A DNA stretch of 64,000 bases from Muribaculaceae bacterium (GTDB taxonomy: Bacteria; Bacteroidota; Bacteroidia; Bacteroidales; Muribaculaceae): contig JAFLTW010000002.1 of the NCBI GenBank assembly GCA_022509085.1, positions 275,217-339,216 on the forward strand. Reading direction: 5' to 3'. Positions 51,660 through 59,583 of this stretch are shown here, in pieces. Each line of letters begins with the position of its first letter. The first letter of the stretch is position 1. A program made the translations under genes and the position numbers. The notes under the pieces are model-generated. The model was given only the letters and a program-made list of their open reading frames with translations. It did not search any database and was not told the origin of the DNA.

Positions 51660-52139
51660 ATGAAAAGGTTATCGTTCCTATTCTTCATGGTGCTTGCATG
51701 TACCGTATTCGCTAATGAGGCTATGGCTGCTAAAAAAGTTGCGGTCTATGCCGAAGGAGAAATTTCCAAAGCCAGCAAATCTATTGTTTGTTCTTCTGTT
51801 CTTTCACGCCTTTCAGGTAATAAGGATTACAAGGCATTTGAAAGGAACTCAGCCTTTGTAAACGCCCTTGATAAAGAGCAAGACTATCAAACCTCAGGGG
51901 ATGTTCCCGAAAAAGAAATCCGTTCCGTAGCACAACGGATGGGTGTGGACTATGTAATTGTCGTTAATACAGTTATATCTGGCGATGATCAATGTCACAT
52001 GTCTGCTCGAATGATTGACTTGGTAACCGGAGAGATTGTCAAAACTGTAAATCTAAAGCGAGAATACACTGGTACAGATGTCATTTCCTCAATGGCAAAT
52101 AATCTTGCATACCGTCTTATAAATAATTCATCTAAATAA
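51660..52139 (+). CDS. Secreted LpoB/CsgG-like domain protein (first of pair)
   Basis: A 159-residue protein with signal peptide MKRLSFLFFMVLACTVFANEAMA. KKVAVYAEGEISKASKSIVCSSVLSRLSGNKDYKAFERNSAFVNAL and later RMGVDYVIVVNTVIS, then MIDLVTGEIVKTV, are the pattern of the TolB-N/CsgG/LpoB-like fold found in many Bacteroidetes secreted proteins. It begins the operon with the precursor peptide and rSAM enzyme, 9 bp before a longer paralogue. Function unknown; an envelope sensor or export partner is possible. Confidence 0.75.
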   Translation: MKRLSFLFFMVLACTVFANEAMAAKKVAVYAEGEISKASKSIVCSSVLSRLSGNKDYKAFERNSAFVNALDKEQDYQTSGDVPEKEIRSVAQRMGVDYVIVVNTVISGDDQCHMSARMIDLVTGEIVKTVNLKREYTGTDVISSMANNLAYRLINNSSK

Positions 52140-52148
52140 TCTCTTTCC

Positions 52149-53132
52149 ATGAAGAATTCCGTTCGCCTTCTGCTAATTCTGTTGAGTGGCATTGTTTTTA
52201 ATATTCCCTTATATGCTCAGGAACACGCAAAAAAGAAAGTTGCTGTTTATATGACCGGGACAACATCTGATGAGGCCTATAAAAAAGTTATTGGTGCTAA
52301 GTTGGTAAATGCAATCACTGAAAGTGGAGAGTACGCCGCTGTTGAAAGGACTGCAGACTTTTTAGCAGCACTGTCCGCTGAAAGTGATTATCAAACATCA
52401 GGAGAAGTAAGAGATAGTCAAATTGCTCGATTGGGACAAAAATTTGGTGTGCGGTATGTTGTTGTAGCAGATGCAAGTGAACTTTTTGATGAGTATTTTA
52501 TTGCTGCAAGATTAATAAATGTGGAAACCGGTCTTGTCGAGCGAGCCTTTGACATTAATGGTCCTGCTGACTCAATGAGTCAACTCGTAGCTCTTTCTCA
52601 AAAAGTAGCGCAAGGACTTCTTAATACATCTGGCAGATCGTATATATCTGGTGTTTCAAAAGAACCTTTAAATATGTCATTATGCGCTATAAAAGACCAT
52701 AACCTCGTGTTTATAACTGCAACTGAATGGGAAAAACTGGGAGAACAGGAAAAAGCCAAATTTGAGAAGAAAGGAATCTGTATATTGAATAATGGAGAAG
52801 CATTTGTTGTATCTTTAAGAGACAGTCCTTCTGGCGATTGGCATTACGCCAAAAGTAATCATGCACCAACCACAGACCAATTGGAAATAATTTATAACAA
52901 CATAGGGCAGTTAAACAGTATATTACGATATTTTGGTGGAAAACCAATGGATAGAGAAAAAGATACTTATTATTGGACATGCAAAGAAGGACCTCATTCA
53001 AGATACGGATTATCAATTACGATGTGTGATGGTTCTTTCGCAGGTCATGATAAAATTTATTCAGGAAATATTAACCGTCCCGTATACAAAATTCAAGAGA
53101 TTATTCAAGAAAGCCCTTTACTATGGAAATAG
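52149..53132 (+). CDS. Secreted LpoB/CsgG-like protein with FISUMP-like C-terminal domain
   Basis: A 327-residue paralogue of the preceding protein with an extra domain. Signal peptide about 1-24; LpoB/CsgG-like domain about 28-165 (KKVAVYMTGTTSDEAYKKVIGAKLVNAI, DSQIARLGQKFGVRYVVVADA). The C-terminal part (about 180-327: FITATEWEKLGEQEKAKFEKKGICI, DRDTYYWT-like) resembles DUF1566/FISUMP domains. Its last 10 bases overlap the start of the precursor-peptide gene. Confidence 0.75.
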   Translation: MKNSVRLLLILLSGIVFNIPLYAQEHAKKKVAVYMTGTTSDEAYKKVIGAKLVNAITESGEYAAVERTADFLAALSAESDYQTSGEVRDSQIARLGQKFGVRYVVVADASELFDEYFIAARLINVETGLVERAFDINGPADSMSQLVALSQKVAQGLLNTSGRSYISGVSKEPLNMSLCAIKDHNLVFITATEWEKLGEQEKAKFEKKGICILNNGEAFVVSLRDSPSGDWHYAKSNHAPTTDQLEIIYNNIGQLNSILRYFGGKPMDREKDTYYWTCKEGPHSRYGLSITMCDGSFAGHDKIYSGNINRPVYKIQEIIQESPLLWK

Positions 53133-53299
53133 ACGAGTCGACAATTATTGAATTAACCCCAGCTCAATTGCAAATCTTAAAAATTGCGCAAAAAAAGACA
53201 GCGGTAAATTCTGAGGATTTTATAGATAATTGGAGTGAATACAACGAGAGTTATGACGACTATAATGACTGTCATGGCGACTACTATGATGCTGAATAA
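53123..53299 (+). CDS. 58-residue RiPP precursor candidate with aromatic-X-acid heptad repeat
   Basis: The peptide starts MEIDESTIIELTPAQLQIL (leader-like amphipathic helix, about 1-30) and ends with a core rich in aromatic and acidic residues. Triads F33-I-D35, W37-S-E39, Y40-N-E42, Y44-D-D46, Y47-N-D49, H51-G-D53 and Y54-Y-D56 start 4,3,4,3,4,3 residues apart, a perfect seven-residue rhythm. The start overlaps the upstream gene by 10 bp, and the stop directly abuts the next ATG. Modification by the downstream radical SAM enzyme is inferred; the triads fit the motif of three-residue cyclophane-forming enzymes. Confidence 0.8.
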   Translation: MEIDESTIIELTPAQLQILKIAQKKTAVNSEDFIDNWSEYNESYDDYNDCHGDYYDAE

Positions 53300-54034
53300 A
53301 TGAGTTTTACTATGCCTGAAAATGCGTTATCAGCTTTAATAATAGGTTTTATGTCGGGAGTCCTTGCGACTTTATTATCTTGGATTATAACTCACATAAT
53401 ATTTTCCCCCAGAATTAAGGTAAGTCGTGATATCGCTCTTCGTTTAACTCCAGACAAAAGACCTGTATTAGATGAAAAGGAACGCCCGATACGCGATGAA
53501 AATGATGAAATAATTCTAGAAGATTACATAGCATCTGTATATAGAATAAAAATTGAAAATGCGTCCTTTAGAAATGCGTTTGATATCAAAATCTATATTC
53601 GACTAAATTACAAACAACAGTATGCTATTATTAACGTACCGGATCAGCCAGTGTTATTAAGTATACCATGGTATGCCAGGTTGCCGCTTCTTAAGAAATT
53701 CTTCCCAAAGTGTGATATTTACCAACATCAGAAGCTCTTCCCTTTCAGAATGACTGACATAAGGATGCAGAAAATTCAAGGATTTAAAGATAATCCCCGA
53801 TTGATAGGACTATTCAAGAAACGAGAACTTAGCCTCTATGATTTCAATGATGAAAAGACAACTCTTGAAGTAATTGTTACCGCATACGATAGTTTTAGCG
53901 GGACGGCTCAGCGTACCTTATCTCAAACGTATACGCAAGAAGAAATTGACAAATTTGTTATTCCGGGATATTTCAAGGATGGAGAAATGTTTGTGACCCC
54001 CGATGAACAGCAACCACAGACAAGCTCAATATGA
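53300..54034 (+). CDS. Membrane-anchored protein of the rSAM operon
   Basis: A 244-residue protein with one strong N-terminal transmembrane helix (about 9-33: ALSALIIGFMSGVLATLLSWIITHIIF), then a beta-rich soluble domain (about 60-215) that I do not recognise. The TM helix near the N-terminus gives a single-pass topology. It begins immediately after the precursor stop (TAAATG) and overlaps the rSAM start by 4 bp (ATGA), so dosage is tied to both. A role in export, protection or holding the maturase at the membrane is possible. Confidence 0.7.
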   Translation: MSFTMPENALSALIIGFMSGVLATLLSWIITHIIFSPRIKVSRDIALRLTPDKRPVLDEKERPIRDENDEIILEDYIASVYRIKIENASFRNAFDIKIYIRLNYKQQYAIINVPDQPVLLSIPWYARLPLLKKFFPKCDIYQHQKLFPFRMTDIRMQKIQGFKDNPRLIGLFKKRELSLYDFNDEKTTLEVIVTAYDSFSGTAQRTLSQTYTQEEIDKFVIPGYFKDGEMFVTPDEQQPQTSSI

Positions 54035-55143
54035 CAATTATCATTAAGCCAACATTTAATTGCAACTTCCGATGTTCATATTGTTATCTAACTAATAATG
54101 TTAAGTCGGATATTTTAATAATGAATTATAAGGATGCGGAAACCCTTATTTCTCAAGTCGTAACGTTTTGTAAGAAAAATAGCAGACGGAGGTTAACTAT
54201 TATTTGGCATGGGGGTGAACCACTATTGTGGGGAATCGAAAACTATCGTTCAATTTTTGCTTTTGCCGCACAATTAACAGATGATATTCGTATACGTCAT
54301 TGTCTGCAAACAAATTTATCCCTAATTAATGAAGATTATATAGATCTCTTTAAGAAATATAATGTTAAGATTGGGTTCTCTCTTGATGGGCCAAAAGATA
54401 TAAACGATAGATATCGAAAACGAATAGATGGAAGAGGAACTTTTGACACGATTATAAGGAATCTATATAAATGTCGTGACGCTGGACTTAATGTGGGAGC
54501 AATAGTTGTTGCAAGTTCTGTTTTAAAAAATCGTATTCCTGAATTATACCGTTTTATTTGCGAATATAAGTTGAATTTCAAATTTAATCCTCTCTTTTTG
54601 GCAGGTGAGGCATCTAATTGTCAGAACTCATCGTTGTCTCCACTTGAATATGCCCAAATGTCGAATGAATTATTTGATCTTTGGTTCTTCGATAAAGAAC
54701 ATCATATTAAGGAATCAACCTTTGAAGATATTGCAAGTGCTTTTTTAACAGAAAATAAGATTACTAAAGGGTGCATGTTTTCAAGAAATTGTCAAGATAA
54801 TTTCTTGGCTATTTCGCCACATGGTGATGTTTTTCCATGCGGAAGATTTTGTGATACAGACACAACGTATTCTTATGGTAATATTAATGAAGAGCCACTT
54901 GAAATTATTCTAAAACGTAGAAAAGATTCTGCACAATATAAAAGAGCAGAGTTTATTGGGGAAGTAGGATGTAAGGATTGCTCCTTTTTTGATATTTGTC
55001 ATGGAGGATGCCTACATGACGGCTATTTGAATGGTGGTAATTTTGAATCTAAAACATTTCTTTGTGCCGCATATAAATTAATTTTTGGTCATATCCGAAA
55101 CCGCGTGCAAAACTACTTAGTGCCTTATTACAATTCAAATTAA
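54031..55143 (+). CDS. Radical SAM/SPASM peptide-modifying enzyme
   Basis: A 370-residue enzyme. C11xxxC15xxC18 (NCNFRCSYC) binds the SAM-cleaving [4Fe-4S] cluster; HGGEPLLWG and FSLDGPKDINDRYR follow. The C-terminal SPASM region (about 247-352: KGCMFSRNC, FPCGRFC, CKDCSFFDICHGGC, FLCAAYK) holds ligands for two auxiliary clusters, as in anaerobic sulfatase maturases and RiPP maturases. The 4-bp overlap and neighbour gene point to the 58-residue peptide as substrate. The absence of any sulfatase nearby argues against a sulfatase maturase. Confidence 0.9.
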   Translation: MTIIIKPTFNCNFRCSYCYLTNNVKSDILIMNYKDAETLISQVVTFCKKNSRRRLTIIWHGGEPLLWGIENYRSIFAFAAQLTDDIRIRHCLQTNLSLINEDYIDLFKKYNVKIGFSLDGPKDINDRYRKRIDGRGTFDTIIRNLYKCRDAGLNVGAIVVASSVLKNRIPELYRFICEYKLNFKFNPLFLAGEASNCQNSSLSPLEYAQMSNELFDLWFFDKEHHIKESTFEDIASAFLTENKITKGCMFSRNCQDNFLAISPHGDVFPCGRFCDTDTTYSYGNINEEPLEIILKRRKDSAQYKRAEFIGEVGCKDCSFFDICHGGCLHDGYLNGGNFESKTFLCAAYKLIFGHIRNRVQNYLVPYYNSN

Positions 55144-55232: not shown

Positions 55233-55271
55233 ACCTCGGCACCTACTCTTGGTTGGTGCCGAGGTTTTTTC
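55233..55271 (+). terminator. Terminator of the rSAM operon
   Basis: ACCTCGGCACC (55233-55243) pairs with GGTGCCGAGGT (55255-55265), loop of 11, followed by TTTTTT. A strong intrinsic terminator about 90 bp past the rSAM stop. Confidence 0.9.
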
Positions 55272-57057: not shown

Positions 57058-57246
57058 TTATTTGTGGGATCGCTGTTCATAATCCTTCAGGGCTTCTTTG
57101 GCGGGTACTACTCGGGGCGTACCGTTTTTGTCGGCGAAAACCATGTCTTGTCCGAGGGCTGCCTTACGGCGGAGAAGGTCCTCGTAGGATTGCTTTAGGC
57201 CCTTCTCTAATTTATCCTTTAATTCGCGTTTTTCTTGTTCAGACAT
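57058..57246 (-). CDS. Small partner-type protein, copy retained without its zeta-like toxin
   Basis: A 62-residue protein (MSEQEKRELKDKLEKGLKQS, then LLRRKAALGQDMVFADKNGTPRVVPAKEAL) nearly identical to the one at 58578-58766. Its N-terminus overlaps a second frame that still encodes FTQIKESCLN, the C-terminal residues of the zeta-like kinase, but the rest of that toxin is gone. The intact frame despite toxin loss is what an antitoxin would show. The function is not proven. Confidence 0.7.
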   Translation of the reverse strand: MSEQEKRELKDKLEKGLKQSYEDLLRRKAALGQDMVFADKNGTPRVVPAKEALKDYEQRSHK

Positions 57247-58577: not shown

Positions 58578-58766
58578 TTATGAATTAGTTTGCTTTTCGT
58601 ATTCTTTCAAGGCTTCGCGTGCGGGTACTACTCGAGGCATGCCGTTTTCGTCGGCGAAGACCATGTCCTGGCCGAGGGCTGCCTTACGGCGGAGAAGGTC
58701 CTCGTAGGATTGCTTGAGGCCCTTGTCAATTTTATCAAATAAGCTTAATTCTTCCTGTTCAGACAT
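58578..58766 (-). CDS. Small protein overlapping the zeta-like kinase gene
   Basis: A 62-residue hydrophilic protein (MSEQEELSLFDKIDKGLKQS, then LLRRKAALGQDMVFADENGMPRVVPAREAL). Its ATG lies 22 bp inside the 3' end of the zeta-like kinase gene in another frame, so the two are translated together. Four copies of this family occur in the window. I infer an antitoxin or accessory partner. Confidence 0.75.
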   Translation of the reverse strand: MSEQEELSLFDKIDKGLKQSYEDLLRRKAALGQDMVFADENGMPRVVPAREALKEYEKQTNS

Positions 58767-59317
58767 GATTCTTTGATTTGAGTAAATAACTTGGGATTAA
58801 CAACCTCTCTATTATTTGCTATCATTTTTGCGGTTGTTTCGTTGTCATAAAACATCCAACTGTCTACTATCGGTGCAAATATAGTGAAAAAGTTTTGAAG
58901 TCCGGCCCAATAACGTCGATAAATTACGTCGGTAGGAATGTTGTGGCCTCCCTCGCTTACGCGCTTGGATACACGCTCCGCGGCCATCTCAGGTGACGGC
59001 AACCAAAAGAAAAGCAAAATTACTGTATATCCTAATTCTTTTGCTTTCTTGATGGTGTTGGCATATGATTTGGTTGCCAAAGTAGTTTCGATAGCGAATG
59101 TTTTTCTTTCAGACATTAGGTTGCCGATGCGTTGGAGCATCAGTTTCCCGGCTTCTATTGCTACCGACTCCGGGTTGAAAGGGGAAAGACCCCGGGCTAT
59201 CTCATCGGCATTGACAAACTCCCTACAACCCAATAATTCAGGTAAAACGGAATAGGAGGCGGTAGTTTTACCTGCTCCATTGCAACCGGCGATTATGAAT
59301 AATGTGGGGGATGACAT
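58745..59317 (-). CDS. Zeta-toxin-like AAA_33 kinase
   Basis: A 190-residue P-loop protein: Walker A GCNGAGKTT (11-19), NADEIARGLSPFNPESVAIEAG, ETTLATKS, RVSEGGHNIPTDVIYRRY. These match zeta/PezT-type toxins, which phosphorylate UDP-N-acetylglucosamine and stop cell-wall synthesis, but many AAA_33 relatives have other substrates. The classical epsilon antitoxin normally precedes zeta; here the small partner follows and overlaps it. The promoter region is the 42-bp repeat array. Confidence 0.85.
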   Translation of the reverse strand: MSSPTLFIIAGCNGAGKTTASYSVLPELLGCREFVNADEIARGLSPFNPESVAIEAGKLMLQRIGNLMSERKTFAIETTLATKSYANTIKKAKELGYTVILLFFWLPSPEMAAERVSKRVSEGGHNIPTDVIYRRYWAGLQNFFTIFAPIVDSWMFYDNETTAKMIANNREVVNPKLFTQIKESCLNRKN

Positions 59318-59338
59318 GTAAAATATTTATTTAGGGGG

Positions 59339-59583
59339 ATTGACTCGTATTCGCTCGTCTATCCTCGTGGCTTTGGCGGGATTGACTCGCATTCGCTCGT
59401 CTATCCTCGGAGGATTTGGCGGGATTGACTCGCATTCGCTCGTCTATCCTTGGAGGCTTTGGCGGGATTGACTCGCATTCGCTCGTCTATCCTCGGGGAT
59501 TTGGCGGGATTGACTCGCATTCGCTCGTCTATCCTCGGGGATTTGGCGGGATTGACTCGCATTCGCTCGTCTATCCTTGGAGG
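59339..59583. repeat. Six tandem copies of a 42-43-bp unit (VNTR)
   Basis: Units start ATTGACTCGCATTCGCTCG at 59339, 59381, 59424, 59467, 59509 and 59551, each ending TTTGGCGGG, nearly identical with no unique spacers, so it is not a CRISPR array. It lies between the zeta-like gene and a 24-bp inverted repeat and probably varies in copy number. Confidence 0.9.

What the first reader, a model, noticed from the sequence alone, without database searches (positions are those of the whole stretch)
53123..53299. Undescribed RiPP precursor with a perfect seven-residue aromatic-X-acid rhythm
Seen: the 58-residue peptide has seven triads (aromatic, any, Asp/Glu): F33, W37, Y40, Y44, Y47, H51, Y54, spaced 4,3,4,3,4,3. 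It splits into heptads FIDNWSE, YNESYDD, YNDCHGD and YYDAE. Known: three-residue cyclophane-forming rSAM/SPASM enzymes join an aromatic residue to the third residue of such triads. Inference: up to seven linked rings on one face of a helix-like core. This fixed rhythm with mixed Trp, Tyr, His and Phe is, to my knowledge, not described.
Basis: partly seen in the sequence, partly recalled or inferred. Interest (0 to 1): 0.93.

Follow-up and report, generated by a model that had tools for sequence, protein, structure and literature searches.

The report
Many-ringed peptide family of Bacteroidales
A 58-residue bacterial peptide carries seven aromatic-any-acid triads next to a radical SAM enzyme gene that is predicted to tie each triad into a small ring, and relatives across Bacteroidales keep the triads while the residues between them change, so this is a likely new family of many-ringed natural peptides of unknown role.

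Summary
In detail: ORF 53123-53299 encodes 58 residues with seven aromatic-X-Asp/Glu triads starting at 33, 37, 40, 44, 47, 51 and 54. It lies in a tight gene row with a radical SAM/SPASM gene (54031-55143), a membrane-protein gene between them and two secreted-protein genes upstream. Of 34 loci with a Bacteroidales-type rSAM, the 33 with upstream sequence all carry a homologous precursor on the same strand. Among 18 distinct close cores the triad anchors hardly vary (mean 0.14 bits) while X and spacer positions do (0.92). The core is under purifying selection, the leader diverges. So the RiPP-with-triads reading is well supported. The 4,3,4,3 heptad rhythm and helix face are not: relatives mostly space triads by 3, sometimes 4 or more. 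Tyr-to-Asp(i+2) cyclophane chemistry is already known (triceptides, YxdB; PMC11002830), but this rSAM reaches no NCBIfam cut-off shown and the precursors have no Pfam or NCBIfam model. I call it a new variant of a known kind: densely tandem triceptide-type RiPPs with an unusually constrained core and with a Kir-like single-pass membrane protein and envelope-type proteins as neighbours. Ring formation and function are untested.

The parts
53123..53299 (+). RiPP precursor, 58 aa; leader about residues 1-32 with the motif T-P-A-Q-x-x-I...K, core about 33-58
   Evidence: Translation; alignment of 19 and 49 precursors; triads and shuffles; the exact leader/core border and cleavage site are not known
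53219..53296 (+). Core region, residues 33-58, seven aromatic-X-D/E triads
   Evidence: anchors nearly invariant in 18 distinct close cores; purifying selection
54031..55143 (+). Radical SAM/SPASM enzyme, 370 aa, the predicted ring-forming maturase
   Evidence: Pfam PF04055 and PF13186 above gathering score; CX3CX2C at 11, C254-X10-G-X4-C270, CX2CX5CX3C at 314-327; best NCBIfam model DynA 260.4 bits, cut-off 450
53300..54034 (+). Membrane protein F1, 244 aa: one helix (7-34) followed by a beta domain resembling the cytoplasmic domain of Kir channels
52149..53132 (+). Secreted-type protein, 327 aa, N-terminal domain of TolB-N/PelC/LpoB/CsgG type
   Evidence: Weak profile hits below cut-off; model of low confidence (pLDDT 71.6, pTM 0.44) with TolB, PelC, LpoB and CsgG hits; same family upstream of the precursor in 7 of 7 window-type loci with enough upstream sequence (WIN, L012, L014-L017, L020)
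51660..52139 (+). Secreted-type protein, 159 aa, paralogue of the N-terminal part of the next gene
   Evidence: Same family F5; aligned
55233..55270 (+). Hairpin with 11-bp arms and a T run, possible end of the transcript
   Evidence: Read by eye; partly listed, where such sites are no more frequent than in shuffles

Best explanation
The gene encodes the precursor of a ribosomally made peptide whose C-terminal 26 residues likely become a chain of up to seven small rings, each predicted to be closed by the neighbouring radical SAM/SPASM enzyme between an aromatic residue and the acidic residue two places further on. Steps: (1) shown by comparison: the leader carries a family-wide motif (T-aromatic-A-Q-x-x-I...K; P in this subgroup) and the core keeps its aromatic and acidic anchors. 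(2) Inferred: the enzyme, which starts directly at its radical SAM domain, binds the leader and works along the core, taking a beta hydrogen from Asp or Glu (perhaps sometimes Ala) and joining that carbon to the ring two residues before it, minus 2 Da per ring, as 3-CyFE enzymes do. (3) Inferred: the product is a rigid, highly acidic ribbon. (4) Inferred, weaker: the membrane protein with the Kir-like domain holds or senses the peptide at the inner membrane, and the secreted proteins act with it in the envelope. How the leader is removed is unknown. A core kept almost letter for letter beside a drifting leader speaks for one fixed target or task rather than an arms race.
For: Precursor upstream of the enzyme on the same strand in 33 of 33 loci with upstream sequence and in 5 of 5 copies in order genomes. 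Aromatic residues with Asp/Glu at +2: 266 of 409 against 107.4 +- 7.8 in shuffles, +1, +3 and +4 depleted. Anchors 0.14 bits, other positions 0.92 bits, p 0.0014, in 18 distinct cores chosen without imposing anchors. Core gain and loss in triad-sized steps: P0002, P0003 and P0019 lack a YNES unit, P0219 has two extra YQE units against P0177. Core amino-acid identity 0.84 against 0.25 in the leader over 8 loci; window and L013 share 26 of 26 core residues with dS about 2.0. SPASM cysteine pattern; the best-matching NCBIfam models include the C-C or C-N cross-linking maturases DynA, DarE, YhhB, AmcB and GrrM. Known enzyme YxdB makes Tyr C3 to Asp C-beta bonds (PMC11002830, passages).
Against: No chemistry was seen. 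The +5, -1, -2 and -5 offsets are also enriched, as tandem repeats would give, so the statistics do not single out i+2 by themselves; shared ancestry inflates the z-score. With a looser set (59 stretches, 50% identity, mixed registers) the anchor test gives only p 0.07. Some triads are broken: Ala for Asp46 in 2 of 18 close cores, Ala in the fourth triad of the 11 EHTDY-type cores (the selecting pattern includes it), Y-x-x-D instead of Y-x-D before DYND in 17 of 153, degenerate core in L035, 4 of 153 precursors with three triads or fewer. N48, C50, G52 and Y55 are as conserved as anchors although not anchors. The enzyme reaches no NCBIfam cut-off among the 25 best models shown. Forty of 49 remote rSAM loci show no triad-dense ORF nearby.
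Confidence: 0.68

Rival explanations
1. The enzyme makes other or fewer bonds: dynobactin-like His-N to C-beta links, four-residue rings, a thioether at the Cys of DCHGD, or only one or two rings per peptide, the other triads serving recognition or charge.
For: The closest NCBIfam model is DynA, whose product has a Trp-Asn(i+3) C-C and a His-Tyr C-N link (PMC11002830, passages). DYNDCHGDYYD is the most conserved stretch and Y-x-x-D occurs before DYND in 17 of 153.
Against: 50 of 153 distinct precursors have no Cys in the last 30 residues. Anchors are kept along the core N-terminal to DYND too, and triads are gained or lost as units.
Confidence: 0.2
2. The enzyme is an anaerobic sulfatase maturase or acts on another protein, and the acidic peptide is a partner or metal binder that stays unmodified.
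For: TIGR03942 is the second best model (210.7 bits); the core is strongly acidic (9 Asp/Glu and no Lys/Arg in 26 residues) with Cys and His.
Against: TIGR03942 cut-off 349.45 not reached; no CxPxR-type sulfatase motif in the peptide (motif recalled; sequence); the precursor was present at every rSAM locus with upstream sequence, whereas no sulfatase is among the 25 of 39 Pfam families shown for 88 neighbours (an FGE-sulfatase factor-type domain occurs once).
Confidence: 0.07
3. The triads are a by-product of a low-complexity Tyr/Asp-rich tail and mean nothing for chemistry.
For: Tyr, Asp and Glu make up much of the core.
Against: Shuffles of the same letters do not give the pattern; X positions vary while anchors stay; the core is conserved over saturated synonymous sites.
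Confidence: 0.03

Closest known systems
Triceptides made by 3-CyFE radical SAM/SPASM enzymes (XncB, OscB, MscB; YxdB, HaaB, YhhB)
   Same: Short precursor beside an rSAM/SPASM gene, motif aromatic-X-X with residue i joined to i+2; YxdB joins Tyr to Asp (PMC11002830, passages)
   Different: Five to eight triads in 135 of 153 distinct precursors; the acid at position 3 is dominant; different leader; no NCBIfam cyclophane-maturase cut-off reached by this rSAM; the YxdB sequence and its precursor were not compared, so YxdB could be a nearer relative than I can tell
In-silico rSAM clusters of PMC9062424 (Aro-X-Asn; repeated Tyr/His-Asn-Arg, Cluster 41)
   Same: Repeated aromatic triads, Tyr and His in one precursor, predicted cyclophanes (passages)
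   Different: Third residue Asn or Arg, not acid; an alpha-ketoglutarate/Fe oxidase and a peptidase in Cluster 41; the search terms Bacteroid and YxD gave no occurrence in that paper
Dynobactin and darobactin maturases (DynA/DynE, DarE)
   Same: Nearest NCBIfam models; rSAM/SPASM peptide cross-linkers
   Different: 260.4 of 450 and 150.8 of 650 bits, below cut-off; different cross-link spacing (i to i+3, and i to i+2) reported for dynobactin
Bacteroidales RiPP clusters of the BAGEL4 survey (PMC10352776)
   Same: Same order, rSAM enzymes (outline, abstract and passages)
   Different: Those selected clusters mostly have GG leaders and C39 peptidase transporters; here GG or GA occurs before the last 25 residues in 3 of 153 precursors, and no C39 or ABC exporter is among the 25 of 39 Pfam families shown for 88 of 96 neighbour proteins. 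The word cyclophane does not occur in that paper

Membership tests
Triceptide / 3-CyFE system | Precursor with aromatic-X-X triads beside an rSAM gene | tested here: met
Triceptide / 3-CyFE system | rSAM enzyme with SPASM domain | tested here: met
   Pfam PF04055 and PF13186 above cut-off; cysteine pattern
Triceptide / 3-CyFE system | Reaches the cut-off of a named cyclophane-maturase model (YhhB, AmcB, GrrM/OscB, XyeB, FxsB) | tested here: not met
   147.6/445, 144.4/425, 130.1/310, 106.7/450, 106.3/370 bits. So it is not filed under any of these named subfamilies
Triceptide / 3-CyFE system | C(sp2)-C(sp3) bond between residues i and i+2 | not testable with these tools
   Needs MS and NMR
Dynobactin maturase (NF041298) | Model cut-off 450 bits | tested here: not met
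   260.4 bits
Anaerobic sulfatase maturase (TIGR03942) | Model cut-off 349.45 bits | tested here: not met
   210.7 bits
TIGR04083 peptide-modifying rSAM | Model cut-off 300 bits | tested here: not met
   175.6 bits
Kir potassium channel (for protein F1) | Two membrane helices around a pore loop | tested here: not met
   One helix (7-34) in the model, then the beta domain; only the cytoplasmic-type domain resembles Kir
LpoB (TIGR02722, for the 327-aa neighbour) | Model cut-off 110.55 bits | tested here: not met
   23.2 bits

The most novel reading that the evidence does not exclude
One enzyme closes a ring at every triad, seven in this peptide and up to nine or ten in relatives, turning the core into a rigid, polyanionic poly-cyclophane ribbon. 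It is not a toxin but a fixed-structure component or ligand of the Bacteroidales envelope, held at the inner membrane by a single-pass Kir-like protein and handled by CsgG/LpoB-like proteins, and the same tandem chemistry runs on in DPANN archaea.
Probability: 0.27. Interest if true: 0.85.

Novelty: new variant of a known kind. Interest (0 to 1): 0.66.

Why it matters
If the rings form, this would be a very densely cross-linked rSAM peptide family in largely animal-associated Bacteroidales (by the record titles), with a built-in natural experiment: dozens of cores in which triads were added, lost or re-spaced under one enzyme family. It would make the rules of tandem cyclophane formation testable, give templates for rigid acidic peptide rods, and offer a RiPP whose core, not leader, is the constrained part, which points to a function other than warfare.

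Tried and rejected
Heptad or helix-face reading: rejected, spacing varies across the family. Chance low-complexity tail: rejected. Sulfatase maturase: rejected. Cys-centred thioether as the main reaction: unlikely, 50 of 153 distinct precursors lack a Cys in the last 30 residues. Phage or plasmid gene: the first viral-contig scan gave no relative, the profile scan three remote ones at 27-31%; all 356 plasmid and all 44 phage records matched are below 60% identity, best listed 27.9% and 25.8%. RRE in protein F1: not suggested by its model and matches; not tested further. ABC or C39 exporter: not among the 25 of 39 Pfam families shown; 88 of 96 neighbour proteins were given, and 14 families were not shown.

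Tests that came out weak or faulty: (59 stretches at 50% identity, mixed registers) gave only p 0.07; the column test used a faulty pattern and matched 3 cores; one search imposed anchors in its pattern; the one I report, imposes none. Terminator-like sites are no more frequent than in shuffles.

Rows dropped or imperfect: P0232 failed the leader pattern; P0182, P0205 and P0231 stayed in although their representative stretch is a read-through tail or cut short, which lowers the signal. In one search only 120 of 157 hits were listed; the other 37 were not seen. The 49 precursor ORFs include some genes held twice. In the tree L011, L034, L036, L070, L073, L077, L079, L090 and L092 were not entered (partial or broken frames) and L043 was dropped for a stop. 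In one search near ORFs were counted on the enzyme's strand only, far ORFs on both.

Literature: the listings show nothing that I recognise as this family; only PMC11002830, PMC9062424 and PMC10352776 were opened (passages; for the last also outline and abstract). The primary triceptide paper (JACS 2022) is not held, so it may list some of these precursors.

Full report
What is there. The ORF at 53123-53299 encodes MEIDESTIIELTPAQLQILKIAQKKTAVNSEDFIDNWSEYNESYDDYNDCHGDYYDAE. The gene is the third of five tightly packed genes on the + strand: two secreted-type proteins (51660-52139; 52149-53132), the precursor (its start overlaps the previous gene by 10 bases), a membrane protein (53300-54034, starting right behind the precursor's stop) and a radical SAM/SPASM enzyme (54031-55143, overlapping by 4 bases). 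A hairpin with 11-bp arms and a T run lies about 90 bases behind (55233-55270, by eye; the scan finds such sites no more often than in shuffles).

The enzyme. Pfam gives Radical_SAM and SPASM above their gathering scores. The cysteines follow CX3CX2C at 11, C254-X10-G-X4-C270 and CX2CX5CX3C at 314-327; over the 28 aligned sequences (window included) the SPASM cysteines are invariant and the first three nearly so. The best NCBIfam models are peptide maturases and sulfatase maturases, DynA first with 260.4 bits, but none of the 25 models shown reaches its curated cut-off. It is a SPASM peptide-maturase type of enzyme but of none of those named subfamilies.

The family. A first protein search gave 19 precursors with nearly one core; that tool needs shared exact words, so this was biased. 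Going in from the enzyme reduces the bias: a scan of one genome per species found 335 loci and kept 80. Of these, 34 have a Bacteroidales-type rSAM (47-78% identity); 33 of them have sequence upstream of the enzyme, and all 33 carry a homologous precursor on the same strand, 6 of them two. The profile was seeded with ORFs that have a leader motif and at least four triads and then converged by homology at E < 1e-3. The common leader motif is T-aromatic-A-Q-x-x-I...K. A profile search of the protein collection gave 157 precursors at E <= 0.01, 120 of them listed. None of 49 precursors matches a Pfam model at E 0.01; in NCBIfam there are two stray hits, one member each (best E 0.013).

The rule in the core. 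In 47 representative cores (60% identity; from 159 precursors, one dropped) 266 of 409 aromatic residues have Asp or Glu two places on, against 107.4 +- 7.8 in shuffles; +1, +3 and +4 are depleted, and +5, -1, -2 and -5 are enriched, as tandem triads would give. Shared ancestry inflates the z-score (20.4), so I also asked which positions vary between close relatives: among 18 distinct 26-mers at least 18 of 26 identical to the window core, with no anchor imposed, the 14 anchor positions have mean entropy 0.14 bits and the other 12 have 0.92 (p 0.0014). X residues vary (I/L/Q/H/Y at 34, S/T/I/V/N at 38, N/S/Y/E at 41). Against this, N48, C50, G52 and Y55 are conserved though not anchors, and a looser, mixed-register set gives only p 0.07. 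Gains and losses fall in triad-sized steps: P0002, P0003 and P0019 lack a YNES unit, P0219 has two more YQE units than P0177. Counting D, E or N at position 3, 960 triads in 153 distinct precursors begin with Tyr 594, His 174, Phe 125, Trp 67 and end with Asp 760, Glu 170, Asn 30; 135 of 153 precursors have five to eight triads, the range is 1 to 10.

What does not hold. The 4,3,4,3 rhythm is local. Spacings between successive triads in the 47 cores are 3 (122), 4 (43), 5 (21), 6 (16), 1 (11) and others (15), 228 in all. A subgroup of 11 distinct cores reads FQDYxEHTDYxAYxDY, about one aromatic every 3 residues, with Ala where the fourth acid would stand (the pattern that selected them includes FQD, that Ala and its neighbours). 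Further exceptions: Ala for Asp46 in 2 of the 18 close cores and Y-x-x-D before DYND in 17 of 153, and the degenerate core of L035.

Selection and distribution. In eight window-type loci the core averages 84% amino-acid identity and the leader 25%; the window and L013 share 26 of 26 core residues with dS about 2.0, and in the other six pairs computed core dS could not be estimated. This is purifying selection on the core, unlike a diversifying bacteriocin. The cluster is sparse: a precursor match in 6 of 297 genomes of the family, three of them weak (one, L010, showed no triad-rich ORF), and in 4 of 393 of the order; no same-genus genome listed had one. All 5 copies in those 4 order genomes lie within 750 bases of an rSAM match above 570 bits. 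Three other genomes have only remote rSAM matches (207.7 to 408.5 bits) and no precursor match; short stretches around these and 9 kb around one of them show no family precursor.

Tree and remote kin. The 31 Bacteroidales-type rSAMs entered form one group (100/99 support) in which Muribaculaceae, Prevotellaceae, Rikenellaceae and Bacteroidaceae loci are mixed; with the sparse distribution this suggests horizontal transfer, though most are MAGs, and one row labelled Christensenellaceae is probably misbinned. Among 49 remote loci (27-36% identity) 9 have a triad-dense ORF within 900 bases on the enzyme's strand: 11 of 354 near ORFs against 5 of 3600 far ones on either strand. They come from archaea (mostly DPANN by their titles), Armatimonadota, Kiritimatiellota and one viral contig; where I looked, the archaeal leader is different. 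Seven of the 9 fall in one 15-row group (98/97). Forty of 49 have no such ORF.

How it probably works. The rSAM binds the leader and closes a ring at each aromatic-X-acid triad by the chemistry known for 3-CyFE enzymes; PMC11002830 (passages) reports Tyr C3 to Asp C-beta by YxdB and His/Tyr links by HaaB and YhhB. Ring formation, ring number, leader removal and function are untested.

Known or new. The reaction type is known, and repeated mixed Tyr/His triads with Arg were noted before in silico (PMC9062424, passages). The tandem aromatic-X-acid family, its leader, its enzyme subgroup and its partners were not found in my searches; the library is open-access only and lacks the 2022 triceptide survey, whose title, as cited, covers Tyr and His motifs and which may contain some of these sequences. 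I rate it a new variant of a known kind.

Noticed in passing
L042, L045, L046, L049, L055, L061, L067, L068, L093 (small ORFs within 900 bases of the remote rSAM genes): Triad-dense Tyr/His-X-Asp/Glu ORFs beside remote rSAM genes of archaea, Armatimonadota, Kiritimatiellota and one viral contig, with another leader: possible sister families.
   Followed up: partly
L019, L021, L026, L028, L039, L040: Two precursors per locus; in L019, L026, L028 and L039 the second lies directly before the rSAM and in L028 and L039 has a different core type (YDVHGDSYxDYxDEPYGDYYD-like), so one enzyme may serve two substrates.
   Followed up: partly
window 57058-57246 and 58578-58766 (-), 58745-59317 (-): Two similar 62-aa ORFs, one of them overlapping a 190-aa P-loop protein that looks like a zeta-toxin type kinase (names recalled from the sequence; only the ORF list was seen): possible toxin-antitoxin genes.
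   Followed up: no
window 59329-59583: Tandem repeat, period 42, six copies, 93% matches.
   Followed up: no
window 53300-54034 and its homologues: A Kir-like cytoplasmic-type domain on a single membrane helix, in 28 of 35 RiPP loci: unusual for a RiPP cluster.
   Followed up: partly
L012:5757-5975: The F1 gene of Heminiphilus faecis is broken after 72 residues while precursor and rSAM are intact.
   Followed up: no
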